Shown: positions 70-28,571 of the stretch, piece by piece
How the letters are laid out: the number at the start of each line of letters is the position of its first letter
Numbering within the stretch: the stretch's first letter is position 1
The notes under the pieces: model-generated
Seen by the model: only the letters and a program-made list of their open reading frames with translations
Databases searched by the model: none
Told to the model about the DNA's origin: nothing
Source of the DNA: Solirubrobacter pauli
GTDB taxonomy: Bacteria; Actinomycetota; Thermoleophilia; Solirubrobacterales; Solirubrobacteraceae
Length of the DNA: 64,000 nt
Direction: 5' to 3'
Assembly (NCBI RefSeq): GCF_003633755.1
Contig: NZ_RBIL01000002.1
Coordinates: forward strand, 2,418,001 to 2,482,000
Translations under genes and position numbers: made by a program

Positions 70-83
70 TCCTGATCGGCCTG

Positions 84-109
84 AAGTAGCGCTTCTCGAC
101 GAACTCGCA
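84..109 (-). repeat. cassette-boundary hairpin repeat, copy A1
   Basis: First of about 28 copies. On the strand where the core reads GTCGA, the consensus is a left arm AGTAGCG, a loop close to AAACCGTCGAGAAG, and a right arm CGCTACTT or CGCCACTT. The arms are inverted repeats, often extended outward by bases that pair but differ between copies. The 25-base core of this copy is identical to that of copy B4 near 19.8 kb, on the opposite strand. It lies 34 bases before the DUF4304 gene. Confidence 0.75.
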
Positions 110-142
110 CCTCGGCACAGAGCGCGCTGACAGGATCTCGGC

Positions 143-931: not shown

Positions 932-1246
932 CTACTTCGGAACTTCGTACAAGTCCCCACCGTGAGCCCTGACACCATCCGCGAGCAACGAGAGCAACTG
1001 TGCGGTGCGGGTGTCCGGCGCGCCGGCCCGGCTGTCGAGGGCGATGCGCCACGGAAGGTCGGCCAGATCCGGATGATCGGCGGCCATCTGACCGTCCAGC
1101 ACGAACGCGAGATAGGTGTTGACCTTGGCCTGCAAGGTCAACAGCTGGTCGTCGGTTCCTGTCCATCGGTCCTGCTGGACGATGTGCAGGACCGCGTGCC
1201 CATTCGGACTCACGGAGAGAAAATCGATGTAGTCGGTGTCGAGCAC
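932..1246 (-). CDS. DUF6572-like small protein
   Basis: A 104-residue protein from a GTG start. It has the DUF6572 layout: I-D-F near residue 9, a central L-L-T-L-Q-x-K-x-N-x-Y-L-A-F segment (about 36-49), a glutamine-rich turn, and a C-terminal alpha/beta section. Related short proteins are found in immunity-gene clusters of Gram-positive bacteria, but no biochemical role is known. It is flanked by repeats at 819-838 and 1312-1343. The upstream gene runs the opposite way, so it has its own promoter or depends on read-through. Confidence 0.7.
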   Translation of the reverse strand: MLDTDYIDFLSVSPNGHAVLHIVQQDRWTGTDDQLLTLQAKVNTYLAFVLDGQMAADHPDLADLPWRIALDSRAGAPDTRTAQLLSLLADGVRAHGGDLYEVPK

Positions 1247-1311
1247 CAGGCTGAATCATCGCTTCTCGTTCTGCACCCTGCGCCGATGCCGGACGGGCGT
1301 GATCCCACAGG

Positions 1312-1343
1312 CTGCCGAGAGCAGCGCTTTCGACGGTTGCGTC
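1312..1343 (-). repeat. cassette-boundary hairpin repeat, copy A3, beside the recombinase
   Basis: The opposite strand reads GCAACCGTCGAAAGCGCTGCT, close to consensus but one base shorter in the loop. It ends about 50 bases before the recombinase start codon, which makes it the closest copy to the only recombinase in the window. Confidence 0.65.
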
Positions 1344-1393
1344 GGTTCTGACGCGGTGGTACGCCTCGCGGCGTCGAGCCGTGAGGAGGCGCC

Positions 1394-2107
1394 ATGTCTG
1401 TGTCAACGTCGTCGAAATTGCCGAGCGGCGGTCGATCGCCGGCCGCAGCGCGAGGCTACCGAGCCGGTCGCTCGTCGCGCACCAGGGGACGGCGATACCC
1501 GCCCGATCCACCGCGGGTCGAGGAGATCATCGCGGTGATGCGTTGCTGCGGCGACGGGCTCTACGGGTTACGTGCCCGCGGTTTGATCGCTGTGCTCTGG
1601 CGCTCTGGTCTTCGGGTGCAGGAGGCGCTCGATCTGACCGAGCTCGACTTGGACCGGCGCCGTGGCTCGCTGTTGGTGCGGCGAGGCAAGGGCGGCCGAC
1701 GTCGTGAAGTTGGGATGGACGATTGGGGCTTTGCGCAGCTCGAGCCGTGGCTGCGAGCGCGCGAGCAGATGCCGGTCGGACCGTTGTTCTGCGTGGTCAA
1801 CGGCCGCTCCTGTGGTCGCCCCTGGCGTGCCTCGGCTGCGCGAGTAACGCTACACCGGCAAGCCGCCCGGGCTGGCGTGTGGCGACGATTCGTACCGCAT
1901 CAGCTTCGTCACGCTCACGCGCTTGAGCTGCTTCGCGAGGGTGTGCCGCTGAACGTCATCCAGCGCCAACTCGGTCACCGCAACCGCGGCGTGACGTCTA
2001 TCTACTTGCAGGGGATCGATCTCGACGAGATCATCGAGACGGTCCACGCATGCCGTCCGCCGATGATCTCGGCAAGCGCGGGCCTTCTGCTTCCGCCCCC
2101 TCGCTGA
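1394..2107 (+). CDS. tyrosine recombinase, catalytic domain only
   Basis: A 237-residue site-specific recombinase with an ATG start behind a GAGGAGG ribosome site. The catalytic set is complete: Arg74 (S-G-L-R), Lys99 (G-K-G-G-R), His169-x-x-Arg172 (H-Q-L-R), His195 (L-G-H-R) and the nucleophile Tyr204 (S-I-Y). The first 35 residues are basic and low in complexity. There is no room for the usual N-terminal core-binding domain, so it resembles short recombinases such as the FimB type more than phage or integron integrases. It lies inside the hairpin-repeat block, 50 bases from copy A3, and faces away from most neighbours. It is the natural candidate to act on the repeats, but nothing in the sequence proves that. 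Confidence 0.9.
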   Translation: MSVSTSSKLPSGGRSPAAARGYRAGRSSRTRGRRYPPDPPRVEEIIAVMRCCGDGLYGLRARGLIAVLWRSGLRVQEALDLTELDLDRRRGSLLVRRGKGGRRREVGMDDWGFAQLEPWLRAREQMPVGPLFCVVNGRSCGRPWRASAARVTLHRQAARAGVWRRFVPHQLRHAHALELLREGVPLNVIQRQLGHRNRGVTSIYLQGIDLDEIIETVHACRPPMISASAGLLLPPPR

Positions 2108-2165
2108 CGTTCCGCGGCCGCCCGGCGGATGTGTTCTTCGACGAGCGGCATCGCGCGCCTGAATC

Positions 2166-2723
2166 TCAGTCGTAGGAGCCGCCGGCCCGTGCCGGACTCC
2201 TTGAGAACGTCACGCCGGGACACGAGAGCGGCGAGATCAAGCTGGTCGGCGATGGCCCGTCGATCAGCCCTAGCAGCAGCTCGGTCGCCGTCATGTCGAA
2301 ACGATCGAAGATCTGCTCGGTATCGCGCATCACGACGGTGGGCCACTCGTCGGGCTCACCTTCCGTCAGCCACCACAAGCTCTCAATCTCGGCGGCGCCC
2401 CATTGCAGCAGCCCGGGCTGGTCTGGCCAGAACGCGTGAGGCAGCCAGTCATTGCGCAGATCCTCATAGATGGTCTCGAGCAGTTCGGCGGTCTCGCGTG
2501 TGAGGGTGACGATGTCGAAGACCGGGTGCGGGTTGGCAGGCGAGAGGATGTGGACCTCGGCAAAATTCTTCCGAAACGCTCCCAGGCCGTAGGTGTTCAG
2601 GAGCGCCCGGTAGTCAGTCGGCAGTGGCTGCAGGTGGCCTCGGCACTCGACGACAGGTGCCGTGGAAGGTCTCGGCGACGAGGGCGGCGCAACGAGTTGT
2701 GTGATCCGATTGAGTGGCGACAC
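2166..2723 (-). CDS. SMI1/KNR4 (SUKH)-like protein, probable immunity protein
   Basis: A 185-residue protein from a GTG start. The middle and end fit the SUKH fold: L-P-x-D-Y-R-x-L-L-N-x-Y-G near residues 34-46, then S-L-W-W-L-T-E-G-E-P-D-E-W-P near 115-128, and T-E-L-L-L-G-L near 148-154. SUKH proteins are the commonest immunity superfamily for secreted nuclease toxins. The last 30 residues are proline- and serine-rich and do not look like the family, so the tail may have been replaced when a neighbouring unit was joined. It is convergent with the recombinase, and copy A4 lies 73 bases upstream of its start. Confidence 0.7.
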   Translation of the reverse strand: MSPLNRITQLVAPPSSPRPSTAPVVECRGHLQPLPTDYRALLNTYGLGAFRKNFAEVHILSPANPHPVFDIVTLTRETAELLETIYEDLRNDWLPHAFWPDQPGLLQWGAAEIESLWWLTEGEPDEWPTVVMRDTEQIFDRFDMTATELLLGLIDGPSPTSLISPLSCPGVTFSRSPARAGGSYD

Positions 2724-2795
2724 GAGGGCGTCAACCTACCTTCCGGCTCGGTCACGCGTCTGTCGAGCGCGGAAGCTCCCGTCGCGCGGCGGGAA

Positions 2796-2820
2796 TGGTG
2801 CTTTTCGACGATTCCACTCC
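2796..2820 (-). repeat. cassette-boundary hairpin repeat, copy A4
   Basis: The opposite strand reads GGAATCGTCGAAAAGCACCA. It lies between the SUKH-like gene and the next minus-strand gene. Confidence 0.65.
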
Positions 2821-2945
2821 TTCGGCCGACCGGGAGATCGCTCTCGCTTCGCACGAGAAGCGACGCCACGCAACGCCAGGACCTGCGCTGCGTCCGCCTT
2901 CAGCTGAAGCAAGCGTGCTCGAGATCGCGCGCTCGCCGGCGTGGG

Positions 2946-3398: not shown

Positions 3399-3472
3399 GT
3401 GACCATCGTCTCAGCGCGGCGACCGGCGCGCAGAGACCAAAGGTGGATCTGCACGTCCACCAGCCGAAGCAA

Positions 3473-3500
3473 GATAGTGCTTGTCGACGGACTCGCTACT
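3473..3500 (-). repeat. cassette-boundary hairpin repeat, copy A5
   Basis: The opposite strand reads AGTAGCGAGTCCGTCGACAAG then CACTATC. Left arm, loop and right arm are all present. Confidence 0.7.
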
Positions 3501-3554
3501 CGTCACCGTGCGTGGTTGACGCGCGTCGAAGCGACGCCATCCGCGCGTGGTCGT

Positions 3555-3968
3555 TTACGAATCGTCCACCACGCCAATGACGACAAGCGTGATCGCCGAC
3601 GCGTTCTCCTTCGTCCTTGACGCCTCCTGAGCTGGGTACCGAACCGCCAGCCATGGCGGACCATCGTCGTGGCTCTTTACCTCGTCGCTGGGGCCGCGGC
3701 GATCGCACTGCTCGTGTGGCTGGTCGCGTCTACCTGGTAGCTGGACCCTCCAGCCGTCCGAGCTGGCGGGAGGCACGGACAGCTCCAAAGTGGTTGTTGT
3801 CGACGAAGGCGCTAGTTCGCGCAAGGCAAACGGCGCTACGTCAGCAGCGCATGCACTCCCAATCAGGCCCGCGACACCGGACAACGCGAGCCAACCTTCG
3901 TCGACCTGACCGGACATGACGATGCCGACCACGCCGATCAGCCAAGCAACGAAGAACAGGCGCAGCAC
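3555..3968 (-). CDS. small membrane protein, probably truncated at a hairpin repeat
   Basis: A 137-residue frame from a GTG start. Residues 1-20 and about 27-45 are membrane segments. After about residue 50 the frame runs straight through repeat copy A6, so residues 51-61 are repeat sequence, and the rest is threonine-, arginine- and serine-rich with no clear fold. The likely reading is that a membrane-protein gene was cut when a new unit joined at the repeat and the remaining frame is accidental. An 18-bp inverted repeat (3977-3994) lies just before its start. Function unknown. Confidence 0.4.
   Translation of the reverse strand: MLRLFFVAWLIGVVGIVMSGQVDEGWLALSGVAGLIGSACAADVAPFALRELAPSSTTTTLELSVPPASSDGWRVQLPGRRDQPHEQCDRRGPSDEVKSHDDGPPWLAVRYPAQEASRTKENASAITLVVIGVVDDS
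3669..3743 (+). CDS. possible 24-residue membrane peptide
   Basis: A short frame on the other strand, from GTG, encodes an almost wholly hydrophobic helix (A-L-Y-L-V-A-G-A-A-A-I-A-L-L-V-W) ending in T-W. It lies between repeats A5 and A6, where no other complete gene is evident. No ribosome site is visible and the length is below what can be trusted. Confidence 0.2.
3787..3818 (-). repeat. cassette-boundary hairpin repeat, copy A6 (inside a reading frame)
   Basis: The opposite strand reads ACTAGCGCCTTCGTCGACAA then CAACCACTTT. Unlike the other copies it falls inside the open frame of the membrane-protein gene at 3555-3968. Confidence 0.65.
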
Positions 3969-3994: not shown

Positions 3995-4031
3995 AGCTGA
4001 CGCCGCGCGAGCTTGACCGATCCTCGTGCGA

Positions 4032-4058
4032 CAGCGCTTTCGACGAACTCGCGCCTAC
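4032..4058 (-). repeat. cassette-boundary hairpin repeat, copy A7
   Basis: The opposite strand reads GCGCGAGTTCGTCGAAAGCG followed by CTG. It overlaps the last codon and stop of the gene at 4055-4288 by four bases. Confidence 0.65.
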
Positions 4059-4288
4059 GGAAACACGCGCCAGCGGGGAGAGCACCAGCCGACGACGAAG
4101 TCGAGGATCTCGAGCAGGCGATCCTCTTGCTCTTCTGAGGCTCCGTCGCGAAGACCCTCGAATACCGCGATGAGCTCTTCCCGCGTCGCACCGCTCTCAG
4201 CGGCGTCGCGAGCGAGTTGCCACAGTGGCACTAGCGAATCCTCGTCCGGCTGGGCGAGAAGCTCCCGAGCTCGTGCGGCGACGTTCAC
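4055..4288 (-). CDS. small hypothetical protein, immunity-like
   Basis: A 77-residue, acidic, all-helical protein of unknown function. The pattern A-R-E-L-L-A-Q-P-D-E-D-S, then G-A-T-R-E-E-L-I-A-V-F-E, then L-x-I-L-D-F-V-V-G-W-C-S-P recalls small actinobacterial proteins often found alone beside immunity genes. It has no membrane segment or signal. Its stop codon runs directly into repeat A7, and repeat A8 lies 57 bases upstream of its start, making a compact unit of about 290 bp. Confidence 0.6.
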   Translation of the reverse strand: MNVAARARELLAQPDEDSLVPLWQLARDAAESGATREELIAVFEGLRDGASEEQEDRLLEILDFVVGWCSPRWRVFP

Positions 4289-4345
4289 GACGGCAGCCTA
4301 GTCCGCGCTTTGGCCCGGTCCGGCGCAAGCGACGTCCGCGAACGC

Positions 4346-4372
4346 TAGTGGCCCTCTTCGACGGTTTCGCTC
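4346..4372 (-). repeat. cassette-boundary hairpin repeat, copy A8
   Basis: The opposite strand reads GAGCGAAACCGTCGAAGAG then GGCCACTA. Confidence 0.65.
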
Positions 4373-4512
4373 TTTCGGCGGGGAGCAGGACCGCCGCATC
4401 GGAAGCAGCGGTGGCGTCCAACCGTTATCGCCGCGTGCGCTGTGCCGGCCATGATGCAACGACTGCGGCCGATGGCTGCATCGATCAGGCCGGTCGCTAC
4501 CGGACGACGGCG

Positions 4513-4541
4513 AATAGCCCGTTTCGACGAACTCGATAGTT
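4513..4541 (-). repeat. cassette-boundary hairpin repeat, copy A9, last of block A
   Basis: The opposite strand reads CTATCGAGTTCGTCGAAACG then GGCTATT; the arms CTATCG and GGCTATT pair imperfectly. Rightward of this copy the DNA becomes ordinary GC-rich backbone. Confidence 0.6.
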
Positions 4542-4594
4542 CCTTCGGTCCTGTGCGGGCTGTCGATCTCGTTACGTCGTGATCTTGGGCGGCG

Positions 4595-17951: not shown

Positions 17952-18050
17952 GCAACCGGGCGGCTCAGAGTCGGTCGGCGCTGGGCGGCCGCGGGCTGAC
18001 TCGTCGCTGCTCGAGGCCTGGCGTGGGCGGCTGAGCGACTCGCTCGGAGT

Positions 18051-18080
18051 ACCGAGTTCGTCGAAAACGACCACTTCGCC
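18051..18080 (+). repeat. cassette-boundary hairpin repeat, copy B1, first of block B
   Basis: Reads ACCGAGTTCGTCGAAAACG then ACCACTTCGCC. The outer left flank CGGAGT pairs in part with the right flank. It follows the DHA2 exporter by 99 bases and marks the change from GC-rich backbone to block B. Confidence 0.7.
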
Positions 18081-18207
18081 TTCGCACACGCCAATGGTCA
18101 GAGCGCTCGCGTCGCTTGGTTCAGGGACCGAGCTCGATCGCTCGGTACGACAGCGCAAGGTCGACGATGTCGGCCGGGCTCTTCTCGATGAACGTTCCGT
18201 CGGCTCG

Positions 18208-18405
18208 TCACTCTGGCCAGTAGATGAGGTCTGTAGCCCTCGGGTGCGGGACGCTGTGCTCGAAACGCCGCACCAGCTCATGGTGCTCGGCCTCCGTGCC
18301 GTCCGCTCGCAAGATCTTCTCGACGAGTGCGATCAGCTCATCGCGCGACAATGCACCCGGGTGGCTGACTCGAGGCCCGTCGTCTTCGGGCGGCACGATC
18401 TTCAC
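18208..18405 (-). CDS. colicin/pyocin DNase-type immunity protein (Im9-like)
   Basis: A 65-residue acidic helical protein from GTG. It shows the Im2/Im7/Im8/Im9 pattern: D-E-L-I-A-L-V-E-K-I, then E-L-V-R-R-F-E-H, and the signature H-P-R-A-T-D-L-I-Y-W-P at residues 53-63, matching the H-P-x-x-x-D-L-I-Y-Y-P helix that binds the nuclease toxin. In the characterised family these proteins bind HNH-type bacteriocin DNases and block them. Here no toxin gene is adjacent, so it is an orphan immunity gene. It occupies its own unit between repeats B1 and B2 and reads against the direction of the repeats. Confidence 0.82.
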   Translation of the reverse strand: MKIVPPEDDGPRVSHPGALSRDELIALVEKILRADGTEAEHHELVRRFEHSVPHPRATDLIYWPE

Positions 18406-18459
18406 GGGCAGCGAGTGTCAAAGCCGGTCACCGCTCAAGTGTGCCGGGCAGCAGCGAAA

Positions 18460-18490
18460 GAAGCGTCTCCGTCGAAAAGGACGCTTCTCC
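18460..18490 (+). repeat. cassette-boundary hairpin repeat, copy B2, with swapped arms
   Basis: The loop TCCGTCGAAAAG is conserved but the arms are AAGCGTC and GACGCTT instead of AGTAGCG and CGCTACT. Both arms changed and still pair perfectly (7 bp), which is direct evidence that the hairpin itself is under selection. Confidence 0.75.
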
Positions 18491-18546
18491 GAGCAAGCAT
18501 GACCATCGTGGGCGCCCAAGACCTGGTCCGCCCCCCCATAACGGCG

Positions 18547-18575
18547 CCCAACCGTCGAGAAGAACCACTCGATTC
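18547..18575 (+). repeat. cassette-boundary hairpin repeat, copy B3
   Basis: Reads AACCGTCGAGAAG then AACCACTCG. Only 56 bases separate it from copy B2, too short for a gene, so the unit between is empty or deleted. Confidence 0.6.
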
Positions 18576-18665
18576 GGCCGTGTGCGACATCCGTCGACAG
18601 CGGTTGCCTCGTCGCGCAGGCTCGCGATAGTGGCGAGGTGCGGAAGGTGCTCGCTATCGCTCGCT

Positions 18666-19004
18666 GTGGGCGAGCAGCGACCCCAAACCCGAGCGGACCG
18701 TCAGCGCGCGCGACGAGCCCTGAGGCTCTTGCGGGAAGCCGATCCTGACGGGCGCTGGCACGTTCGTCGCGTTGTGATCGTTCACGGCACGGCATGGGTG
18801 TTCACCCGGCTCGGAACGTCCCTGCGCGGTAGGCCTTCGCTGGTGGCGATCTGCAGAGCTCTCGTCGACCAGTTCCGCTGGTCCGACAACGTCTCGGTCA
18901 TCGGACAGGAACGAAGTCCCACCGTCCATTCGTGGGTCCTCGTCGAGGGCGACGCGCCGGCGGATTGCGCGGAATCGAGCGTGGGGGAATCGCATTCGCA
19001 ATGA
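18666..19004 (+). CDS. hypothetical protein
   Basis: 112 residues from a GTG chosen because upstream codons are rich in arginine and proline and overlap repeats B2 and B3. The core (about 25-85) alternates strands and helices: R-R-V-V-I-V-H-G-T-A-W-V-F, S-L-V-A-I-C-R-A-L-V-D-Q-F-R-W, and V-H-S-W-V-L-V-E-G-D. No family is recognised. It is soluble with no signal peptide, and convergent with the next gene. Confidence 0.5.
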   Translation: MGEQRPQTRADRQRARRALRLLREADPDGRWHVRRVVIVHGTAWVFTRLGTSLRGRPSLVAICRALVDQFRWSDNVSVIGQERSPTVHSWVLVEGDAPADCAESSVGESHSQ

Positions 19005-19073
19005 CGACGGAAAGCCGCCATCCCCTCGAAAGCGTGCTGGTCCACTCGTACCGAAGAAGCGCGCGCGGTGTCG

Positions 19074-19655
19074 CTACGCCACCTGGGTGACCCCGGCGTG
19101 GGCGATGCTGAGAACCCGACGTCTGTCAGGGGAGACGGTGACCCGCGTCCAGCTCGTCGACACATATGCGGGTCCGAGGCGCGGCTTGCGTGAAGCGGTC
19201 AGGCGAACCCAGACGACGTCCGGCTCGTCTGGATGCACGACGACTTCGTCGGTCGTGTGGGTTCCCGGCTCGTAGCGATCGGTGGCCTTCAGCGATCGGA
19301 TGTAGTCCTCGGCTTCCAGGATGAATCGCCCGGCGACGATGGCGAACTCGTCGCTGAGCAGCGAGCGCAGGGCGTCGTAGTCTTTGGCGTTGCTGAGCGC
19401 GCTCAGGTGCTCGATCAGCGGCACGTGAACCGCCGTGGCGCCGGGCGGCGGACCGGCCGAGGGATCGACCTGCTTCAGCAGGTGCTCGCGCGCACGGCGG
19501 GGCCGCAGCAACCGGTAGTACGCCATCGACCCCGCAACGGCCACCAGAGCAGGGACGACCGACGCCCACCAGGGGGCGTCGACGGCGTCAAGAACACCGT
19601 CCAGGACCACGTAGAACACGAGCCAACCAACGCAGAGGAGCAGTAGGCGCTTCAT
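19074..19655 (-). CDS. membrane-anchored NTF2-like protein
   Basis: 193 residues from ATG. Two adjacent membrane helices (about 4-22 and 30-48) are followed by a basic R-P-R-R-A-R-E loop and a soluble domain from about residue 75. That domain (helix-rich start with D-Y-D-A-L-R-S-L-L-S-D-E-F, then V-V-V-H-P and V-W-V-R-L-T-A-S strands) has the feel of an NTF2/SnoaL cone fold, an inference from pattern only. Function unknown. It shares its unit with the convergent gene at 18666. Confidence 0.6.
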   Translation of the reverse strand: MKRLLLLCVGWLVFYVVLDGVLDAVDAPWWASVVPALVAVAGSMAYYRLLRPRRAREHLLKQVDPSAGPPPGATAVHVPLIEHLSALSNAKDYDALRSLLSDEFAIVAGRFILEAEDYIRSLKATDRYEPGTHTTDEVVVHPDEPDVVWVRLTASRKPRLGPAYVSTSWTRVTVSPDRRRVLSIAHAGVTQVA

Positions 19656-19773
19656 CAGCGGCGCGAGCCTACGCGACCTGTCGCTCAGTGGCCAGTGCGC
19701 ACGGCAGCCAGCAAGCCATCGAAAACCGACCCCGGCATTCCCAAAGCGACAGACGAGACAGGCAGGGGTGACC

Positions 19774-19800
19774 AGCGAGTTCGTCGAGAAGCGCTACTTT
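19774..19800 (+). repeat. cassette-boundary hairpin repeat, copy B4
   Basis: AGCGAGTTCGTCGAGAAG then CGCTACTTT. The 25-base core is identical to copy A1 (84-109, opposite strand), 19.7 kb away. Confidence 0.8.
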
Positions 19801-19844
19801 CACTTGTGCCGTCGATGCGAATCCGTCGCTGGCAGACTGACCCG

Positions 19845-20036
19845 ATGCGCGCAGTGGTTGCATCTGCAAGCGGAGAGACGGCGCTCCGATCGAACGGAGG
19901 GCGCTACGAGATTGGATCGCGTGGCGAATGGTTCCCGATCGAGGAGGCGCTTGTGAGTCTGCTCCCCCTGCTCGAGCGCGCGCCAGGGGACGGCGTTGCA
20001 CACGTCGGCAAACTGCGAGGACCACTGTTTCCGTAG
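19845..20036 (+). CDS. very small hypothetical protein
   Basis: 63 residues from ATG, 44 bases after repeat B4. It has a short beta section (S-N-G-G-R-Y-E-I-G) then a helix (P-I-E-E-A-L-V-S-L-L-P-L-L-E). No family is recognised and no membrane segment is present. The position at a constant short distance after a repeat is like that of several other plus-strand genes of the block. Confidence 0.45.
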   Translation: MRAVVASASGETALRSNGGRYEIGSRGEWFPIEEALVSLLPLLERAPGDGVAHVGKLRGPLFP

Positions 20037-20244
20037 GGGACAGTCCTCACGGCGGCCCTCAGCAGCGACAGCGCCTACTGGTAGGAGCGCGCTGTCGAGT
20101 GGCTCGCCGCGCTTGGCACGGCACCGCGCTCGTGGAATACATGCCGGCGCGGTCGCCGAGCCGCTAGCCTCGCCATTTCACCTGCCACGCGCCAATGTCA
20201 GCCCAAGGGATCAGTGCACGCCACGGTGTGCACCCCTGGCAAAG

Positions 20245-21378
20245 TCAGGCGAGGCCGGCGATTTTCGGCACGAGGTCGGCGGGCGTCGGCAGCGTCGCGA
20301 TCTCGTCGGCCACCTCGGAGGCGGCCCGGCCCAGCCCCGGGTCGGTGAGCAGGCGGTCGATCAGCTCCGCGTCCACCTGATCCGGCTCCGAACGCAGACC
20401 GAGTCCGCGCCGCACCACGGCGTCCGCGTTCATGTACTGGTCGGCGCCGTGCGGCAGCACGAGTTGTGTGACTCCGGCGTCGATCGCGGTCAGCGTTGAG
20501 CCGGCCCCGCCGTGGTGCACCAGCGCCGCGCAGGTCGGCAGCAGCGCGGACAGCGGCACCCACCCGGCCGCCCGCACGTTGTCCGGCAGTTCTCCCAGTG
20601 GCGACGGGTCCGCGTCGCCGAGGGCGAGTACGAACTCGGCGTCCAGATGCCGTGCCACGTCGACGAGTTTGGTCAACGACGTGAGCGCGCCGACCTGGGT
20701 CAGCACCGTGCCGAGTGTCACCGCGACGCGCGGGCGCGCGGGCCGTTCGAGCACCCACTCGGGCAGCACGCCACCTCCGTTGTACGGCACGTACCGCATC
20801 GGCCAGCCGCGCACCGGCCGGTCGACCATGCTCGGCGGCGCCACGTCGATCGACTCGCGCACCTCGGGAAACCCTTGCACGCCATGCCGTTCGCGTTCCT
20901 CCACCATCTTCTTGAAGATCGCCTCGGTCATCGACGCCTCGTCGCCGAACCCGAAGCCGTGCGACACGGCCGGCACGCCGAGCTTCGCGGCGACCAGCGG
21001 CCCGGTGCCCTCCATCGACGAGTACACGACCACGTCCGGCCGCCACGATTCGGCCGCCGACACGGTCAGGTCCACCGACACGCCGGACAACTTGGCGAAG
21101 ATCGCGCCGATGAACTCCAACCCCTTCTCGGTGTCGACGTCCGTGCTGTAGTCGAACTTCTCGGGTTGCTCGCTGGCCGCCTGCTGGAACACCGCGCCGA
21201 TGTCGACACCCGGCGCGGTGTCCACGACGTGCAGGCCGGCGTTCGCGGCCTCCTTGCCGCCCGCGGTCGCCATCAGCACCTCGTGGCCGGCGGCACGCAG
21301 CGCGTGTGCCAGGGGGATCGTCGGGAACACATGGCCAAGACCGGGGGAGGTCGCGAGGAGTGCGCGCACGATTCCCAT
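20245..21378 (-). CDS. MGT-type glycosyltransferase (GT-B, family 1)
   Basis: 377 residues from ATG. N-terminal Rossmann part: L-L-A-T-S-P-G-L-G-H-V-F-P at 7-19. The C-terminal donor-binding segment has G-W-V-P-L near 275, H-H-G-G-A-G-S-T near 290-297 and P-H-G-A-D-Q near 312, the signature of macrolide and antibiotic glycosyltransferases. It would transfer a sugar from an NDP-sugar to a small lipophilic acceptor, and no biosynthetic genes are nearby to suggest which. Its codon choice is regular and GC-rich, unlike neighbouring block B genes, so it may have been captured separately. It shares the interval between repeats B4 and B5 with a tiny gene. Confidence 0.85.
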   Translation of the reverse strand: MGIVRALLATSPGLGHVFPTIPLAHALRAAGHEVLMATAGGKEAANAGLHVVDTAPGVDIGAVFQQAASEQPEKFDYSTDVDTEKGLEFIGAIFAKLSGVSVDLTVSAAESWRPDVVVYSSMEGTGPLVAAKLGVPAVSHGFGFGDEASMTEAIFKKMVEERERHGVQGFPEVRESIDVAPPSMVDRPVRGWPMRYVPYNGGGVLPEWVLERPARPRVAVTLGTVLTQVGALTSLTKLVDVARHLDAEFVLALGDADPSPLGELPDNVRAAGWVPLSALLPTCAALVHHGGAGSTLTAIDAGVTQLVLPHGADQYMNADAVVRRGLGLRSEPDQVDAELIDRLLTDPGLGRAASEVADEIATLPTPADLVPKIAGLA

Positions 21379-21848
21379 TTAACACGCGCCGTCGATGCGC
21401 GCCATGCCGCGCGATGCTATGAGGCCGGACTGGAACCTTGCGTCAACGCGACTCGACCCTCGCCACGCGTCCCCGCCGTGTGCGGAAAACGCGGTTCCGC
21501 TCCCGGGCCCGGGCGAGCGAACGGCCCCGCGCGATCGCTCACACGCGAAAGGCTAAGCCAGGCTGCTTCCGCTTTGAGGCACAAGCGGAAGTGAGACGAC
21601 GGAATCGGTCGCAACCCAGCCGAGCCCCGCCGCGCTCACCGCGACACCAGCTTTATGCGACAGCCACCGTGCGACGCGGTAGCGCCGGATTCTGCCGAAG
21701 TAGCGAAATCGTCGAAAAGAACCACTTTGGCGGGTACTCTTCGAGCGCTTTCTCTAGTCGAGATCGTCGCGGTCGTTGCCGTCTACCTTGATCCTGCAAT
21801 TGCGCGGCGAGCGGCGCCACGCGGCGAGGGCACTCACGTCGACACGGG
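21379..21848. other. 470-bp stretch: promoter region, stem-loop and repeat B5
   Basis: No gene is seen. It holds a perfect 9-bp stem (CTTCCGCTT 21566-21574 with AAGCGGAAG 21583-21591, loop 8) and repeat B5. It must contain the promoter for the leftward glycosyltransferase. Confidence 0.5.
21694..21731 (+). repeat. cassette-boundary hairpin repeat, copy B5
   Basis: GCCGAAGTAGCGAAATCG, TCGAAAAGAA, CCACTTTGGC. The outer stem GCCGAAGTAG pairs with CCACTTTGGC over 10 positions with two non-Watson-Crick pairs. Confidence 0.8.
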
Positions 21849-22292
21849 ATGGACGGCATGGACTTCGACGATTTCCCCGACCACCTCCGCCAGCGACTCG
21901 ACTCGCTCGGCGAACAGGCGCCGGCGCGAGCCGCGGTCCAAGAGTTCCTCGCGATGGCACGGCTCCCCATCGACGATCGGTTCCCGCGGTCTGAAGCTGA
22001 CGACTTCGTGCGCGCCATCGCCGGGACCACCGACGACAGTCATCAGATCCAGCTCCTGCGCGAAGTAGCGACCTACATGGACGACGAGTTTGCTGGAATC
22101 GCGTATTTCAATCTGATCCTGGACTTTGATCGATCCACCATCGATGGCCCCGTGGAGTTCTCGCTCGACCTCGACGAGGAAGCCCCGTATCCGCTCAGCG
22201 ACGTGATACCGATGATGGAAGCCGCAAACGACGTGCACCGCCTGCTCACGGTCCCACCCCGATCCTGGAAGACGTACGTCGACGGCGTCTGA
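21849..22292 (+). CDS. acidic hypothetical protein, immunity-like
   Basis: 147 residues from ATG, strongly acidic, all soluble. It has a helical N-terminal half (D-F-P-D-H-L-R-Q-R-L-D-S-L, A-A-V-Q-E-F-L-A-M-A) and a strand-rich middle (F-N-L-I-L-D-F-D-R-S), ending D-V-I-P-M-M-E-A-A-N-D-V-H-R-L-L. No family is recognised. High negative charge is common in immunity proteins that mimic nucleic acid or cover basic toxins, so that role is possible but unproven. It forms a single-gene unit between repeats B5 and B6. Confidence 0.55.
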   Translation: MDGMDFDDFPDHLRQRLDSLGEQAPARAAVQEFLAMARLPIDDRFPRSEADDFVRAIAGTTDDSHQIQLLREVATYMDDEFAGIAYFNLILDFDRSTIDGPVEFSLDLDEEAPYPLSDVIPMMEAANDVHRLLTVPPRSWKTYVDGV

Positions 22293-22429
22293 GACCCGCG
22301 CGCCAACTGCTACTTCTCGCCCGGAGCAACGTGGCGATGCCCGCGCCACGTCAGACAGCGTCGTACTGGCGGCGAGACCGGGACGAACGCGTCGCGAAAC
22401 ACGCGCCGCCTCTGTAGGTGCCCACCGAC

Positions 22430-22462
22430 GATGGCCAAATCGTCGAAAAGGATCCCTCCGTC
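22430..22462 (+). repeat. cassette-boundary hairpin repeat, copy B6
   Basis: AAATCGTCGAAAAGGATCCC. The loop is exact and the arms are degenerate (GATGGCC and GGATCCC). Confidence 0.6.
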
Positions 22463-22489
22463 GACACGATCAGGCCAGGGTTCGGGTAC

Positions 22490-22753
22490 GTGCCCTTTGT
22501 GCACCGATTCTGGTCTAGTGCCTACTGGTTCGACATCCTCGGTGCTGTCGTGTCCGTCCCGCTATTCGTGGTCGCGCTCATCCACGGGGTCGGATGGCGA
22601 AGCCTCGTCATCCTCGCCGCCGGGGCGTTCTGGACGCTGATGGCTCGGGTCGACCGTCGACGCGCTCGCGCGTCCGCCCGGCACCGCGCGCTCCGCCGCA
22701 GTAGACGAGCCCGTGAGGCGCAAGAGGACTGGGACCGACCTCGTCGAGATTGA
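22490..22753 (+). CDS. small membrane protein
   Basis: About 87 residues from a GTG at 22490. Longer starts would translate through repeat B6. Two membrane helices (about 10-32 and 36-52) are followed by a very basic tail (R-V-D-R-R-R-A-R-A-S-A-R) of about 35 residues, which should lie on the cytoplasmic side. Function unknown. Small two-helix proteins of this type occur among immunity genes for membrane-active toxins, but this is a loose analogy. Confidence 0.5.
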   Translation: MPFVHRFWSSAYWFDILGAVVSVPLFVVALIHGVGWRSLVILAAGAFWTLMARVDRRRARASARHRALRRSRRAREAQEDWDRPRRD

Positions 22754-22754
22754 G

Positions 22755-22787
22755 AGGCGCGGTTTCGTCGAATAGCGCTACTTCTGC
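22755..22787 (+). repeat. cassette-boundary hairpin repeat, copy B7
   Basis: GGCGCGGTTTCGTCGAATAG then CGCTACTTCTGC. It begins one base after the stop of the membrane-protein gene. Confidence 0.7.
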
Positions 22788-22832
22788 GTCTGCCTCGAAG
22801 GGGCAGCCGAACCGAATGCCCGCTGGTGCCGG

Positions 22833-23240
22833 TCACTCTGACGGCCCCGGGCCGGAGGGCGAGTCCTCCTCGCGATCTTCACGGAAGAGTCCCCTCTCCC
22901 GCATGAGCTTCAGCGCACCGGCCGCGACAGGCTTGATGCGTTCCGGCCACCCCGACTCGATGAACTCCTCGTCGGAACAGATCCGCGGAGTTGCGGCACA
23001 CGCCTCCAGCAACAATCGCTGGACCCGGTCCAACTCGTGCACTTCGACCGGCGTGAACGTCGACCAGTCCCGCCACTGCCAAGGCGCCTCGTCGTCGATG
23101 GTGTCGAAGAAAACGTTGACGTACTCGGCGTGTCCTACTGAGCGCACGCCGTCGTTTCCTTCGGCCAAAAGGTCGAGTGACTCGATTGCGCGGTTCCGAA
23201 GGCGCTGCTCGATGACGCGCTCGCTGGGTCGGTCGTCCAT
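22833..23240 (-). CDS. SCO4402-family protein
   Basis: 135 residues from the ATG at 23240, chosen over a longer frame because M-D-D-R-P-S-E-R-V-I-E-Q-R-L-R-N-R is the usual N-terminus of this actinobacterial family. Other conserved parts are E-Y-V-N-x-F-F-D near 48-55, a helix E-V-H-E-L-D-R-V-Q-R-L-L, and F-I-E-S-G-W-P-E-R-I-K-P-V near 100-112. The family is widespread in Streptomyces near immunity-type genes, with no known activity. It occupies its own unit between repeats B7 and B8 on the strand opposite to the repeats. Confidence 0.65.
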   Translation of the reverse strand: MDDRPSERVIEQRLRNRAIESLDLLAEGNDGVRSVGHAEYVNVFFDTIDDEAPWQWRDWSTFTPVEVHELDRVQRLLLEACAATPRICSDEEFIESGWPERIKPVAAGALKLMRERGLFREDREEDSPSGPGPSE

Positions 23241-23360
23241 CCTGGGTAAGGCTAAATGTCCGGCCTCCACCATCGACGTGAGAGCCGTCCCGTGGGGCTC
23301 CCTCAGTGGAATACCTGCGGCAGTGAGCATCGAGCGCGATGCTGCCGCTTTCGCCTGAAC

Positions 23361-23398
23361 GCAGAAGTAGCCAGATCGTCGAGAAACGCTATTTCGGC
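23361..23398 (+). repeat. cassette-boundary hairpin repeat, copy B8
   Basis: GCAGAAGTAGCCAGATCG, TCGAGAAA, CGCTATTTCGGC. The outer arms GCAGAAGTAGC and GCTATTTCGGC pair over 11 positions with two exceptions. Confidence 0.75.
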
Positions 23399-23530
23399 AA
23401 TCACCTTCCGTGAGCCGCTGCGCGAGACGGGCAGCATTGCAACTTCGGTAATGGTTGACTCCGCAACCGGCTGGTAGCCTGGGACTGATCGTTCGATCCC
23501 GGACGAACTACTTCTTGTTGGAGACGTACC

Positions 23531-24628
23531 TTGGCTCTTGATCCGCTCTTCGCGCCGTACGAGCGCGGTGACCTCGTTCTGCCCAACCGGCTCGCGCTCG
23601 CTCCCCTCACTCGCAACCGCGCGAAGGGCACGGTCCCGGCGGAGCTCAACGCGGAGTACTACGCGCAGCGCGCGAGCGCGGCGTTCCTGATCGCCGAGGG
23701 CACGCAGCCTTCGGCCATCTCTCAGGCCTACCTCGACACGCCGGGCCTGCACTCCGACGAGCAACAGGCGGGCTGGGCGAAGGTCGCCCAGGCCGTCGCC
23801 GCCGCCGGCCCCGCGAAGCTCGTCATCCAGCTGATGCACGGCGGACGCGTCGCGCACCCCGTCTTCAACGGCGACCAGCAGCCCGTCGCGCCGTCGGCGG
23901 TCACGGCCGAGGGCACCGTGGTGACTGGCGACGGCAGCGTGCCGTTCGTGGAGCCGCGCGCGATCGAGACGGACGAGCTGGAGGCTGTCAAGGGCGAGTA
24001 CGTGCACGCCGCGCAGCGCGCGCTCGCCGCGGGCGCGTACGGCGTCGAGCTGCACGCCGCTAACGGCTACCTGCTGCACCAGTTCCTCGCCGAGAAGACC
24101 AACCACCGCACGGACGGATACGGCTCCGACGTGGCGGGCCGGATCCGCTTCGTGGTGGAGGTCGTGGAGGCCGTGGCCGCCGCGATCGGCGAGCGCCGCA
24201 CCGCGATCCGCGTCTCGCCCGGCCACGCGGTCAACGACGTCGAAGAAGCCGATCCGCAGACAACCTACGCCGCGCTCTACGAGGAACTCGCCCGCTTCGA
24301 CCTCCTGTACCTGCACGTGCTCGACTCCTCGCCGCACGCGGGCTACGACGTGCTCGACCAAGCGCGTGAGCTCTATCCCGGCACGCTGATCGCCAACCCC
24401 GGGTTCTCCCAGGAGTTCGACTTCGAGGGCGCCGCGGAGCGGATCGCCGACGGTCGTTTCGACCTGCTCGCCAGCGGCCGGCCGTTCCTCGCCAACCCGG
24501 ACCTCCCGCATCGCCTGCGGGAGGGCGCACCACTCAACGAGGCGGACGGGTCCACCTTCTACGGCGGCGACGCGCAGGGCTACACGGACTACCCGACCCT
24601 GGACGAGCTGCAGACCACGACGAACTGA
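23531..24628 (+). CDS. old yellow enzyme-type alkene reductase
   Basis: 365 residues from a TTG with a GGAGA ribosome site 7 bases upstream. Flavin oxidoreductase of the OYE/NemA group: L-P-N-R-L-A-L-A-P-L-T-R-N-R at 17-30, the Q-L-M-H-G-G-R active-site strand at about 98-104, H-A-A-N-G-Y-L-L-H-Q-F-L at 177-188, and the phosphate-binding I-A-N-P-G-F and S-G-R-P-F-L-A-N-P-D near the end. The FMN-linked enzyme reduces activated C=C bonds using NAD(P)H. The larger-than-average unit (B8 to B9) shows that ordinary metabolic genes also occur in the array. A 19-bp stem hairpin follows the stop. Confidence 0.9.
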   Translation: MALDPLFAPYERGDLVLPNRLALAPLTRNRAKGTVPAELNAEYYAQRASAAFLIAEGTQPSAISQAYLDTPGLHSDEQQAGWAKVAQAVAAAGPAKLVIQLMHGGRVAHPVFNGDQQPVAPSAVTAEGTVVTGDGSVPFVEPRAIETDELEAVKGEYVHAAQRALAAGAYGVELHAANGYLLHQFLAEKTNHRTDGYGSDVAGRIRFVVEVVEAVAAAIGERRTAIRVSPGHAVNDVEEADPQTTYAALYEELARFDLLYLHVLDSSPHAGYDVLDQARELYPGTLIANPGFSQEFDFEGAAERIADGRFDLLASGRPFLANPDLPHRLREGAPLNEADGSTFYGGDAQGYTDYPTLDELQTTTN

Positions 24629-24635
24629 GCCTCAG

Positions 24636-24692
24636 GCGCTGCTGCTCGTCCGTGACGTGCTCGCTGCACGCCACGGACGAGCCCAGCAGCGC
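24636..24692 (+). terminator. long hairpin after the OYE gene
   Basis: GCGCTGCTGCTCGTCCGTG pairs with CACGGACGAG and CAGCAGCGC (19 bp in total, with a two-base bulge) around a 17-base loop. It starts 7 bases after the stop codon. Probably a strong terminator. Confidence 0.65.
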
Positions 24693-25001
24693 TGTTGCGA
24701 AGGTGCGGCGACCCCATGCGTCGCCGCCAACCGCTGGGCGTCGCGAGCGACGACGGACTCCTTCGCGCGGGTGAAGCGCTCTGTCTCGATGAGGCCAGCG
24801 CTTCGCTGGCGGCGCTGCTCATCCACCGATCCGCACGTCCTCGCCGGACCGCTGTGACGCACAGCCTGACGGCTGCACAACGTGGCGGAATCGTCGACTA
24901 ACGCTACTTCGCATCTGCCACGGACCGCCGCCGGCGATGAGCTTGCCGTTGGCGGATTGAGCGAGCGCCGCGGACCGAGCCGCACCGAAGGGAAGGCTCG
25001 C
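24693..25001. other. 309-bp stretch with repeat B9 and no clear gene
   Basis: Short open frames cross it (for example at 24695-24901), but none looks like a protein. It contains repeat B9 near its right third. Confidence 0.5.
24881..24911 (+). repeat. cassette-boundary hairpin repeat, copy B9
   Basis: CGTGGCGGAATCGTCGACTA then ACGCTACTTCG. The arms GTGGCG and CGCTAC pair with one exception. Confidence 0.7.
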
Positions 25002-25733
25002 CTAGCAGGAATCAGGCGTGGCTTTGATGTGCTGCCAGCGCGCTGAACGGATGTCCTCCGGGCTTCCCCAGAAACTGATCGTCCCAGCGTCGCCGTACTC
25101 GAAGCCCAGCTCCTCATCCCAGTCGAGCTGCAGCAGACTCAGCTCCCCAGGTTCGCGAGGATCTCCCTGCAGGTACCCCGGCTCCCCGAGCAACAGATGG
25201 GTCGGCATGTCGAGCTCGCGCAAGAACGCGTCAGGCGAATCGAGCATGTCCAGCGCTTCGTACAGCTCCTCCGCGGGCGGCGTCAGCACCGGCACGAACT
25301 GCACCAGCCGCTCGTTCAAGACCACTGGAATCTCTCCCGCGTCGCGTTGCTCGTCCGGTGGCGTCGCGGCGGCCACTGCCGCACCGCCACGCACGTGCAC
25401 GATCTCGATCGCGGGATGGGTTCCGTCCACTGGACCCCATCCTTCGTTGTCAAAGCTGAAGTCCGCAAAGAACACGACCGTGCCGTCTTCCGGCAGGCTC
25501 GCGCGCCACTGCCCCGTCGGGAGTTCCTCGAGCACGATCGACGCCAGGTGCGTCAGGCCTCGTCCGTTGTGGATCGGCCATGAGCCCGGGACCTCAGGGT
25601 GCCCACCGAGCTTGCTCCTGCCCGCACCCCCGCCAACCAACGCGAGCCCCGCAACCGCACGCTCGGCAAGCTCGACAGGCAGCCCGTGCTTGACCAACAG
25701 GCCGCGAAGCTCTTCGACGGTTGTCGGCGCCAT
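25002..25733 (-). CDS. DUF1963 (YwqG-like) protein
   Basis: 243 residues from ATG at 25733. It has the DUF1963 layout: S-K-L-G-G-H-P-E-V-P near 43-52, L-T-H-L-A-S-I near 61-67, G-T-V-V-F-F-A-D-F near 84-92, and a late H-L-L-L-G-E-P-G-Y-L-Q-G-D-P-R near 183-197, then L-L-Q-L-D-W-D near 204-210. B. subtilis YwqG is the reference, without a known reaction, and the family is often encoded beside polymorphic toxins as a likely immunity protein. No toxin is nearby. It forms a single-gene unit between repeats B9 and B10. Confidence 0.8.
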   Translation of the reverse strand: MAPTTVEELRGLLVKHGLPVELAERAVAGLALVGGGAGRSKLGGHPEVPGSWPIHNGRGLTHLASIVLEELPTGQWRASLPEDGTVVFFADFSFDNEGWGPVDGTHPAIEIVHVRGGAAVAAATPPDEQRDAGEIPVVLNERLVQFVPVLTPPAEELYEALDMLDSPDAFLRELDMPTHLLLGEPGYLQGDPREPGELSLLQLDWDEELGFEYGDAGTISFWGSPEDIRSARWQHIKATPDSC

Positions 25734-25811
25734 GCGGCGGCAGGCTACAGACCAGACCACCTGTGGGTCCGTTCACGACCTAAGCCAGCAAGACGGATGG
25801 CTAACGCCGAA

Positions 25812-25843
25812 TGAGCGGAACCGTCGACAAGCACCACTTTGCG
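25812..25843 (+). repeat. cassette-boundary hairpin repeat, copy B10
   Basis: GAGCGGAACCGTCGACAAG then CACCACTTTGCG. Confidence 0.7.
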
Positions 25844-25891
25844 GGTGCCTCGGTTGTACCGGCGAGCGGGTAGTGGCTTTCGGTCCTGACC

Positions 25892-26383
25892 ATGAAGACG
25901 TCCGCAGTCCTGAGCAGCTCCAACGGCCACGACTCTGTGACCCTCACGCGAGTTGATGATGTTCTCTACGTGGTGGTCTGCTGGGTGCCGCAGCGGTGGG
26001 ACGTGGCCGCCGCCGATCCGCCCGCTTCCGAGATCACGCTGTATCGGGAAGGCTTGCCTGACGCGCTCCGGCAGCTATCCGACGATCTCGCCGCCCATCT
26101 CCAGCGGCCGCTTCAAGACCTTGCCGGCAATCCGTTCCTGGGCAGCTATGAGTTCGGCAGCCCGCACATCGCGCTCGACAGCTCCGAGCTTCGCGCATCG
26201 CACGCGCAGCTCGCACTCGAGTTCACCGACGCTCGCGAGGGCTTCATCTCAACTAGATCCAACGGCGGCGGCTACGTCAGCGTCCGCTGGCACTTCAACG
26301 ACTCGTTTCTTCGGGTTGCCATGCGGGTCGACATCACCACGCTCGACAGATTCGCCCGCGAGCTCGCGGATCTCGTGAACTGA
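25892..26383 (+). CDS. hypothetical protein, possibly DUF6228-like
   Basis: 163 residues from ATG, 48 bases after repeat B10. Pattern: alternating strands (S-V-T-L-T-R-V, V-L-Y-V-V-V-C-W), a helix (L-P-D-A-L-R-Q-L-S-D-D-L-A-A-H-L), then paired strands Y-V-S-V-R-W-H-F and F-L-R-V-A-M-R-V-D-I-T and a final helix. This order resembles DUF6228-type small proteins of actinobacteria, though I am not sure of the assignment. It is soluble, with no signal peptide. It forms a single-gene unit between repeats B10 and B11. Confidence 0.55.
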   Translation: MKTSAVLSSSNGHDSVTLTRVDDVLYVVVCWVPQRWDVAAADPPASEITLYREGLPDALRQLSDDLAAHLQRPLQDLAGNPFLGSYEFGSPHIALDSSELRASHAQLALEFTDAREGFISTRSNGGGYVSVRWHFNDSFLRVAMRVDITTLDRFARELADLVN

Positions 26384-26440
26384 GCTCGGTCTCGAAGCGT
26401 CCGCCTACAGCGTGCTGGTCCCCGAACCGGCTCGCAACAT

Positions 26441-26471
26441 GCGTGAGTGCGTCGAGAAGCGCCACTTCGAC
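26441..26471 (+). repeat. cassette-boundary hairpin repeat, copy B11
   Basis: GTGAGTGCGTCGAGAAG then CGCCACTTCGAC. The interval to copy B12 (124 bp) holds no gene. Confidence 0.65.
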
Positions 26472-26595
26472 CTACGCTTGCCTTGGCTGAGCACCCTGGG
26501 CCAGCACAGAGGGGCGATCGGGCAGCGGCGAACCAGGGTTTCCCGCGGCTCGCGCCCCTACCAAGCTTTGTTGTCTCTCCGCAGGCGCGAGCGAC

Positions 26596-26636
26596 CTCGC
26601 CAAGTAGCGAAACCGTCGAGAACGCCACTTTGCGAG
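26596..26636 (+). repeat. cassette-boundary hairpin repeat, copy B12, longest stem
   Basis: CTCGCCAAGTAGCG, AAACCGTCGAGAA, CGCCACTTTGCGAG. The arms pair over 14 positions with two exceptions. This is the clearest full-length copy. Confidence 0.85.
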
Positions 26637-26656
26637 TCGGCTGGCGAGGCGTGGGT

Positions 26657-27112
26657 ATGCGAGTCGTCATGAGGGATTCCGTCCGCGCTTGGCAGGCGCC
26701 ACCGGCAGCCGTCTGGGCGGTTCTGGTGGACCCGCTCAGCTATCCGCTCTGGCTGGCCGGCGTCAAGGACGTGTTGTGGGCCGACGAGGATTGGCCGCAG
26801 CCAGACGCCGGCCTCGACTACAGGTTCCGCTGGGGTCCCTTCACGCTCCGCGGCCGCGCCACGGTTTTGGAGGCGCAGCCTTCCGGGCACCTGCGCCTGC
26901 GCTGGAAGCGCCGTCTGCTCGGCGACGCGATCGCAGAGTTCACGATCGCCGAGACCACGGACGGCTGTGCCGTCGACTTCCGGGAGACCCCTCGAGGACT
27001 CTTCGTCGGGCTATCGGCCAACCCCTTTGCGACGGGAGTCGCGGCCGGCTACAACACCGCTTCGCTGGCTCGACTCCGACGGCTCGTCGAGCGGCAGGAA
27101 CCGACCACATGA
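26657..27112 (+). CDS. SRPBCC (START-like) ligand-binding protein
   Basis: 151 residues from ATG, only 20 bases after repeat B12. SRPBCC/polyketide-cyclase layout: an opening strand S-V-R-A-W-Q-A-P-P-A-A-V-W-A-V-L-V-D, then W-L-A-G-V-K-D, a run of strands with L-D-Y-R-F-R-W and L-R-L-R-W-K-R, and a long C-terminal helix A-G-Y-N-T-A-S-L-A-R-L-R-R-L-V. The fold binds a hydrophobic ligand in a deep cavity. No enzyme activity can be inferred. An in-frame ATG four codons later is an alternative start. Single-gene unit. Confidence 0.72.
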   Translation: MRVVMRDSVRAWQAPPAAVWAVLVDPLSYPLWLAGVKDVLWADEDWPQPDAGLDYRFRWGPFTLRGRATVLEAQPSGHLRLRWKRRLLGDAIAEFTIAETTDGCAVDFRETPRGLFVGLSANPFATGVAAGYNTASLARLRRLVERQEPTT

Positions 27113-27142
27113 CACCCCGTCATCGCGACCGACCCTAAGACC

Positions 27143-27170
27143 AACCATACCTCGGAGAGCACCACTTCTT
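27143..27170 (+). repeat. cassette-boundary hairpin repeat, copy B13 (degenerate)
   Basis: AACCATACCTCGGAGAGCAC then CACTTC. The loop GTCGA has decayed to CTCGG, but position and right arm are kept. Confidence 0.4.
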
Positions 27171-28535: not shown

Positions 28536-28571
28536 CAGTGGACGCGCGAGCGGGAGCGCCTCCCGTCCATC

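What the first reader, a model, noticed from the sequence alone, without database searches (positions are those of the whole stretch)
1312..2107. Catalytic-domain-only tyrosine recombinase next to a repeat copy
The only recombinase in the window lies in block A, 50 bases from copy A3. It has a complete R-K-H-R-H-Y set but no N-terminal core-binding domain. Short recombinases of this kind (FimB type) are known to work on inverted repeats. If this one works on the hairpins it would be a new integrase class for cassettes.
Basis: partly seen in the sequence, partly recalled or inferred. Interest (0 to 1): 0.7.

Follow-up and report, generated by a model that had tools for sequence, protein, structure and literature searches.

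The report
Recombinase gene riding in cassette array
A soil bacterium carries arrays of gene cassettes separated by a short recombination site, and a small recombinase gene sits in one array as a cassette of its own, which makes it a candidate, but not a proven, engine for shuffling these genes.

Summary
The ORF is real: 1394-2107(+), 237 aa, a tyrosine recombinase with R74-K99-H169-R172-H195-Y204 and no core-binding domain. It starts at 1394, not 1312. It lies about 50 bp from a degenerate repeat copy, inside an integron-like array of a Solirubrobacter genome. The repeat reads as a compact ~30-bp duplex core site (about 11-bp inverted arms, 8-bp spacer), not a folded attC. Cassettes recombine there: three cross-genome site pairs switch flank at the spacer. 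The gene is itself a cassette: its homology with the S. taibaiensis copy stops at sites, among unrelated neighbours. Three array copies form one clade under strong purifying selection, dN/dS about 0.07-0.12.
G001 and G006 have the highest site-pattern counts but no such recombinase; 49 of 53 order genomes with the family do not stand out in that count. Of four Solirubrobacter array copies only this one is intact. No genus genome has IntI above cut-off. Most likely it is a cassette-borne recombinase acting on these sites, with arrays persisting after its loss; a passenger role is not excluded.

The parts
1394..2107 (+). single-domain tyrosine recombinase, 237 aa, intact
1306..1360 (-). repeat copy A3 (core TCGAC at 1330-1334): upstream boundary of the recombinase cassette; homology with the S. 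taibaiensis copy starts at 1323, inside it
2120..2155 (-). degenerate site (TCGACG at 2138-2143), 31 nt after the stop; in the copies L079 and L094 a site core lies 29 nt after the stop. Read by eye; below the weight-matrix threshold
71..126 (-). array A site; further left only one weak match (E 0.18, about 3 kb away) in the 18 kb fetched
2780..2835 (-). array A site
3459..3514 (-). array A site
3775..3830 (-). array A site
4016..4070 (-). array A site (one-base-shorter form, like A3)
4333..4388 (-). array A site
4499..4554 (-). array A site
2166..2723 (-). next cassette gene (185 aa, no Pfam match), between the degenerate site and the site at 2780
932..1246 (-). neighbouring cassette gene, DUF6572
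18034..34999 (+). array B: 16 sites, all on +; cassette genes in either orientation (glycosyltransferase, FMN oxidoreductase, DUF1963, polyketide-cyclase-like, exo/endonuclease-phosphatase, DMP19-like; 4 of the 10 proteins scanned had no Pfam match)

Best explanation
The repeat is a ~30-bp duplex core recombination site (AAGTAGCGnnn - YCGTCGAn - AAGCGCTACTT) that separates gene cassettes, like a dif or loxP site. The recombinase gene is carried as one such cassette and most likely encodes an enzyme that recombines these sites, moving itself and, in trans, its neighbours. Shown: partner switches at the spacer; cassettes shared between genomes in other surroundings; the gene bounded by sites among unrelated neighbours; long purifying selection. 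Inferred: that this enzyme, and not another, does the exchange; that genomes with arrays but no gene have lost it.
For: Junctions L138:7073/L143:4520 (left 97%, right 33%), L143:6883/L135:6123 (91%, 46%) and L150:1537/L139:6210 (39%, 88%) switch at GTCGAAA; no pair in that comparison had both flanks alike. Shared cassettes, e.g. 96% over 1031 bp, end 4-18 bases from a detected site at three of four ends. Ends of 65 cross-genome shared stretches lie within 50 bp of a site in 24 of 260 cases (9.2%) against 3.2% for random positions. Recombinase unit: window 1323-2107 matches L079 9369-9981, and L079 9902-10020 matches L094 2387-2505 through the downstream site; apart from single sites nothing else of window 1-6000 matches those loci. 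Array copies W, L208 and L211 form one clade, 100/97. dN/dS 0.08-0.12 by NG86. A Thermoleophilaceae MAG (G060) with a 66-67% relative has its own CGTCGAnnAGCAGCACT sites, 20 pattern matches against 0 reversed; S. soli with a 77% relative has AAGGAGCACT arms, so the arm may vary with the enzyme. IntI: 0 of 7 genus genomes above cut-off.
Against: G001 and G006 have the highest pattern counts (36 each) and no relative at E 1e-25. 53 of 201 genomes have the family; only 4 of these (G000, G003, G004, G060) stand out in site counts. G003 has arrays, but its two 62-65% relatives lie outside them. The copies in S. taibaiensis and S. soli and the second own copy are broken. Other tyrosine recombinases also lie 0.2-6.2 kb from sites in G000, G004 and G005 and were not studied further, save one. 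Expectation maximisation found no family-wide flank motif. Only 15 of 65 shared stretches have an end within 50 bp of a site. Clustering in arrays partly reflects common descent. No experiment.
Confidence: 0.45

Rival explanations
1. Passenger: the recombinase belongs to a single-gene mobile element family (~0.9 kb) with its own sites. One clade was captured as a cassette; array recombination is done by another enzyme, lost or acting in trans, such as the host Xer pair or an unidentified recombinase.
For: Copies elsewhere share DNA only up to about 170 bp before the ATG and about 120 bp past codon 231, apart from a few unrelated coding stretches. Up to 6 matches per genome, several being pieces of broken copies. 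G001 and G006 have arrays without it. Two G003 copies outside arrays have flanking inverted arms of their own (AAGCGATAGTCGG on both sides of one).
Against: The nearest clade was found only among array sites, with unit ends at sites in the window and L079. The Xer-like genes of the genus do not lie near the sites listed (site lists are capped).
Confidence: 0.35
2. Dedicated platform integrase, as intI is: a fixed gene at the head of each array that builds it.
For: In the window, L079 and L094 the gene runs against the sites, as intI does against attC (recalled).
Against: It lies inside the array with sites on both sides (window, L079). In S. soli it runs with the sites. No relative was found in G001 or G006, which have arrays.
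Confidence: 0.06
3. No site-specific enzyme: the repeats are only homology patches or insertion targets, and shuffling is by general recombination.
For: Many copies are degenerate; no tyrosine recombinase of G001 or G006 lies near the sites listed.
Against: Sites are about 30 bp and share little beyond the core, too short for general recombination (recalled). Partner switches fall in the same few bases in three pairs. Information content drops sharply outside a 31-column block.
Confidence: 0.12

Closest known systems
Integron (IntI, attI, attC cassettes)
   Same: Arrays of cassettes between sites of one orientation; cassettes shared between genomes in other surroundings; accessory genes, many of unknown function
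   Different: No IntI above cut-off in 7 genus genomes. The site is a ~30-bp symmetric duplex-type site without clear support for folding. The candidate recombinase is a cassette, not a platform gene. [quoted passage not shown]
FimB/FimE-type short tyrosine recombinases
   Same: Catalytic domain only; similar length; match to PRK09871 at 52.2 bits
   Different: Far below that family's cut-off (222 bits). Sites here are directly repeated and separate cassettes, not an inverted pair around one promoter (FimB facts recalled)
Xer/dif and Cre/loxP
   Same: Closest solved folds are XerA and XerH, closest solved sequences are Xer proteins. Site layout of two inverted arms around a short asymmetric spacer (comparison recalled)
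   Different: No core-binding domain; 8-bp spacer with 11-bp arms; many sites per genome
Single-gene tyrosine recombinase units of Solirubrobacterales (this family)
   Same: Same protein family, about 40-67% identity
   Different: In the loci examined these relatives mostly stand without CGTCGA arrays

Membership tests
Integron | IntI-type integrase | tested here: not met
   TIGR02249: protein 58.2 bits against cut-off 265; 0 of 7 genus genomes over cut-off (none of the 14 control genomes is over it either, so there was no positive control)
Integron | attC sites that fold as single strands | tested here: inconclusive
   Window copies: 58.3% of cells paired against 58.6% shuffled. 128 copies, 8 core pairs: 0.499 against 0.477, p 0.02
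Integron | attC R' box GTTRRRY (recalled) | tested here: not met
   The genus consensus has GCTACTT in that place (by inspection; no attC model was available)
Integron | mobile cassettes between sites | tested here: met
FimB/FimE-type invertase | catalytic domain without core-binding domain | tested here: met
FimB/FimE-type invertase | family model cut-off (PRK09871 / PRK09870) | tested here: not met
   52.2 and 33.3 bits against 222 and 221
Tyrosine recombinase | R-K-H-R-H-Y hexad and fold | tested here: met
Simple tyrosine recombinase (core-binding plus catalytic, PMC8138268) | core-binding domain | tested here: not met
Tyrosine recombinase that acts on the array site | binding and cleavage of the site | not testable with these tools
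   needs purified protein or a plasmid assay

The most novel reading that the evidence does not exclude
An integron analogue that arose independently of IntI. Cassettes are bounded by dif/loxP-like duplex sites, and the integrase, a catalytic-domain-only tyrosine recombinase, travels as a cassette itself, so that any array can regain or lose its own engine. Related arm sequences in a second family (Thermoleophilaceae MAG Co-bin2, G060) suggest that enzyme and site diversify together.
Probability: 0.35. Interest if true: 0.87.

Novelty: new variant of a known kind. Interest (0 to 1): 0.62.

Why it matters
Integrons are the textbook cassette-capture system and are extremely rare in Actinobacteria (PMC9024848, passages seen). 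A second, unrelated solution with a duplex site and a self-carried recombinase would show that cassette capture evolved more than once, and would give a small recombinase with a short defined site. Even if this gene is only a passenger, the arrays show site-specific cassette exchange in Solirubrobacter whose enzyme remains to be found.

Tried and rejected
Fixed array integrase: argued against by genomes with arrays and no gene, and by sites on both sides of the gene. Folded-strand site: no clear pairing signal. Serine recombinase as the array enzyme: no PF00239 hit of the genus lies within 20 kb of a listed site (whose lists are capped). IntI: none above cut-off. Plasmid or phage origin: no tblastn match at 1e-10 in 72,556 plasmid and 50,697 phage records. 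A phage-type integrase 0.2 kb from a lone site on C1 (L097) lies beside a tRNA-like sequence and looks like part of an integrative element, not of an array. Family-wide flank motif: expectation maximisation gave no signal above control (log-likelihoods 117 and 165 downstream, 145 and 203 in control windows; the upstream signal, 132 and 174, is the ribosome-binding region). A hand-made arm motif RAGCNNYASTY was found in 8 of 72 downstream and 4 of 69 upstream flanks, 0 of 68 windows 400 bp away and 29 of 1686 random windows, but it was drawn partly from the same loci, so it is only a hint. The de novo repeat count in 40 loci used strict 22-mers and could miss short or divergent sites. The pattern CGTCGANRANSNNYACT has a background of up to 14 per genome, so low counts mean little. 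One search lists many shared stretches that do not end at sites; the count with a random control is. Errors mended after rechecking: a note put the window's downstream core 29 nt after the stop, it is 31; a note listed L208 among loci with a site within 1 kb, its sites lie 4.9-7.9 kb away and L221 has one instead.

Full report
WHAT IS THERE. The window is G000:C2:2418001-2482000. ORF 1394-2107(+) encodes 237 aa with a PF00589 domain at 47-206 and the full hexad, conserved in the family. The predicted model is confident only for the catalytic domain (mean pLDDT 69.8; residues 1-36 and 198-237 under 50). Its nearest solved folds are XerA and XerH. All NCBIfam matches are far below their cut-offs: XerA-type best (85.1 of 220 bits), IntI 58.2 of 265, PRK09871 52.2 of 222.

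THE REPEAT. 24 window copies gave model R1. Eight are on - in block A (71-4554) and 16 on + in block B (18034-34999). In the own genome R1 finds 54 matches at E 1 or better, mostly in clusters on C2 and C1 (150 of 5156 candidates were scored, and weak single matches are included). In 61 genomes, matches at E 0.01 concentrate in 6 of 7 Solirubrobacter genomes: G000 29, G001 20, G003 12, G004 20, G005 4, G006 20, G002 0. Eight other genomes have 1-2 each, so 14 of 61 in all (93 candidates scored per genome). Across 128 distinct copies information is confined to about 31 columns. The layout is left arm AAGTAGCGnnn, spacer YCGTCGAn and right arm AAGCGCTACTT, an inverted pair around an asymmetric spacer. 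Arm pairing is at chance in the window and weak overall (0.499 against 0.477, p 0.02). I read this as a duplex core site of the dif/loxP kind (comparison recalled).

RECOMBINATION AT THE SITE. I compared all pairs of sites in the fetched arrays (the G006 loci and L133 left out). Three pairs share one flank (over 68% of up to 80 bases, ungapped) and not the other, and no pair shares both: L138:7073/L143:4520 and L143:6883/L135:6123 share the left, L150:1537/L139:6210 the right, with the switch at GTCGAAA. Whole stretches are shared in other surroundings: L138 7083-8112/L143 4529-5557, 96%, ends 17 and 4, and 18 and 247 bases from a detected site; L139 4975-6255/L150 2826-1547, 94%, 1262 and 17, and 86 and 17; L135 6137-6503/L143 6897-7263, 93%, 13 and 73, and 13 and 352. 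Weaker ones involve the window (4039-4290 and 22520-22788, 71-72%). Over 65 cross-genome stretches of 120-3000 bp within the genus, 24 of 260 ends lie within 50 bp of an R1 site (9.2% against 3.2% for random positions), and 15 of 65 stretches have such an end; the others are mostly gene homologies away from sites. Cassette genes run in either orientation.

THE RECOMBINASE AS A CASSETTE. Window 1323-2107 matches the S. taibaiensis copy (L079 9369-9981) from inside site A3 to the stop codon, less an internal deletion in L079; apart from single sites nothing else of window 1-6000 matches L079 or L094. L079 and the second own copy (L094) match on through the downstream site. Site cores lie 29 nt after the stop in L079 and L094 and, degenerate, 31 nt after it in the window; those in the window and L094 and the upstream one in L079 were read by eye. 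In these three the gene runs against the sites; in S. soli (L080) it runs with them, with a site upstream at 9200 and one read by eye after the stop. The window copy is intact; L094 and L079 are internally deleted and L080 is frameshifted. Still, the codons compared show dN/dS 0.08 (window-G004), 0.12 (window-G005), 0.11 (G004-G005) and 0.08 (window-L094) by NG86, so function was kept until recently. Arrays make up about 0.8% of the own genome when spans of matches up to E 0.13 are padded by 1.5 kb. The window copy lies inside such a span; the C1 fragment (2164-2391) lies at the edge of one, among weaker sites at 416 and 2755. Copies made by cassette duplication are not independent.

Do close relatives always go with the repeat? 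No. In 201 genomes of the order, 53 have the family at E 1e-25. CGTCGANRANSNNYACT counts are G000 22, G001 36, G003 22, G004 21, G006 36 and G002 11, against 2-5 for the reversed pattern, and 20 against 0 in G060, a Thermoleophilaceae MAG; the other genomes reach at most 14 (S. soli, G005, was not in that sample). G001 and G006 have no family member at that threshold; their best matches are Xer-like at 34%. Around 27 recombinase loci of relatives plus L102, R1 finds arrays only in L079 and L080, with single weak matches in L067, L071 and L085; eight control loci of other tyrosine recombinases gave one match at E 0.89. Among 76 loci from named genomes, partly the same places, the looser CGTCGANNANNNNNACT occurs in 7 loci, 17 hits against 2 reversed. 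It is multiple in L176 (= G060), L208 (= G004) and L211 (= G005), and within 1 kb of the gene in L176, L178, L211 and L221, 4 against 0. On a tree of 48 rows the Solirubrobacter array copies form one clade (100/97), while L176 and L178 fall elsewhere. Thus the link is strong for one clade and loose for the family.

OTHER SITES. G060 has its own variant (CGTCGAGnAGCAGCACT) and two sites, L153:12555 and L160:5380, with 45 identical bases up to and including CGTCGAG and different right sides (below the threshold). S. soli has AAGGAGCACT arms. In S. phytolaccae one recombinase outside the arrays is flanked by AAGCGATAGTCGG in inverted orientation. These are hints that each enzyme has its own arm, not proof.

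WHICH ENZYME? IntI: 0 of 7 genus genomes over cut-off (no positive control). Serine recombinases: none within 20 kb of a listed site. Other PF00589 genes near sites are an integrase 0.2 kb from a lone site, with a second gene 5 kb from it (G000 C1:278762 and 284608), and genes 1.4-6.2 kb from sites in G005 (C5, C35) and G004 (C349) that I did not study further. I rate the cassette-borne recombinase the most likely actor (0.45) over a passenger role (0.35).

LITERATURE. Passages seen: PMC9024848 (Actinobacteria: no complete integrons, one In0, a few CALIN), PMC8138268 (simple tyrosine recombinases have core-binding plus catalytic domains), PMC3414803. The listings show no title on cassette arrays in Solirubrobacter; only this library was searched, and the listed papers were not otherwise read.

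Noticed in passing
window 28703-29154: Exact tandem duplication of 226 bp (two copies, 100% identical) shortly after the array B site at 28562.
   Followed up: no
L097 8214-9590 (G000 C1 about 278.2-279.6 kb): Phage-type integrase (376 aa) beside a tRNA-like sequence, with a single array-type site (38.1 bits) about 0.2 kb downstream: possibly an integrative element that carries one site.
   Followed up: partly
G060 (L153-L161, L067): Thermoleophilaceae MAG Co-bin2 has its own dispersed site CGTCGAGnAGCAGCACT, with one pair of sites that share the left side only.
   Followed up: partly
L070, L091 (S. phytolaccae): Two 87% identical single-gene recombinase units outside arrays; one is flanked by inverted copies of AAGCGATAGTCGG.
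   Followed up: partly
window 58298-58391: ARAGORN tRNA-Arg call overlaps a GCC-rich tandem repeat (58345-58554) and is probably false.
   Followed up: no
G001 loci L145, L146, L147, L150: 16 of 22 sites lie within 5 kb of a contig end, so arrays seem to break draft assemblies and may be under-reported.
   Followed up: partly
L174, L177, L193, L194, L202, L234: Family members in MAGs labelled Gemmatimonas, Dehalococcoidia, Thermomicrobiales, Chloroflexi or Chlamydiae, on short contigs: mis-binning or transfer, not resolved.
   Followed up: no
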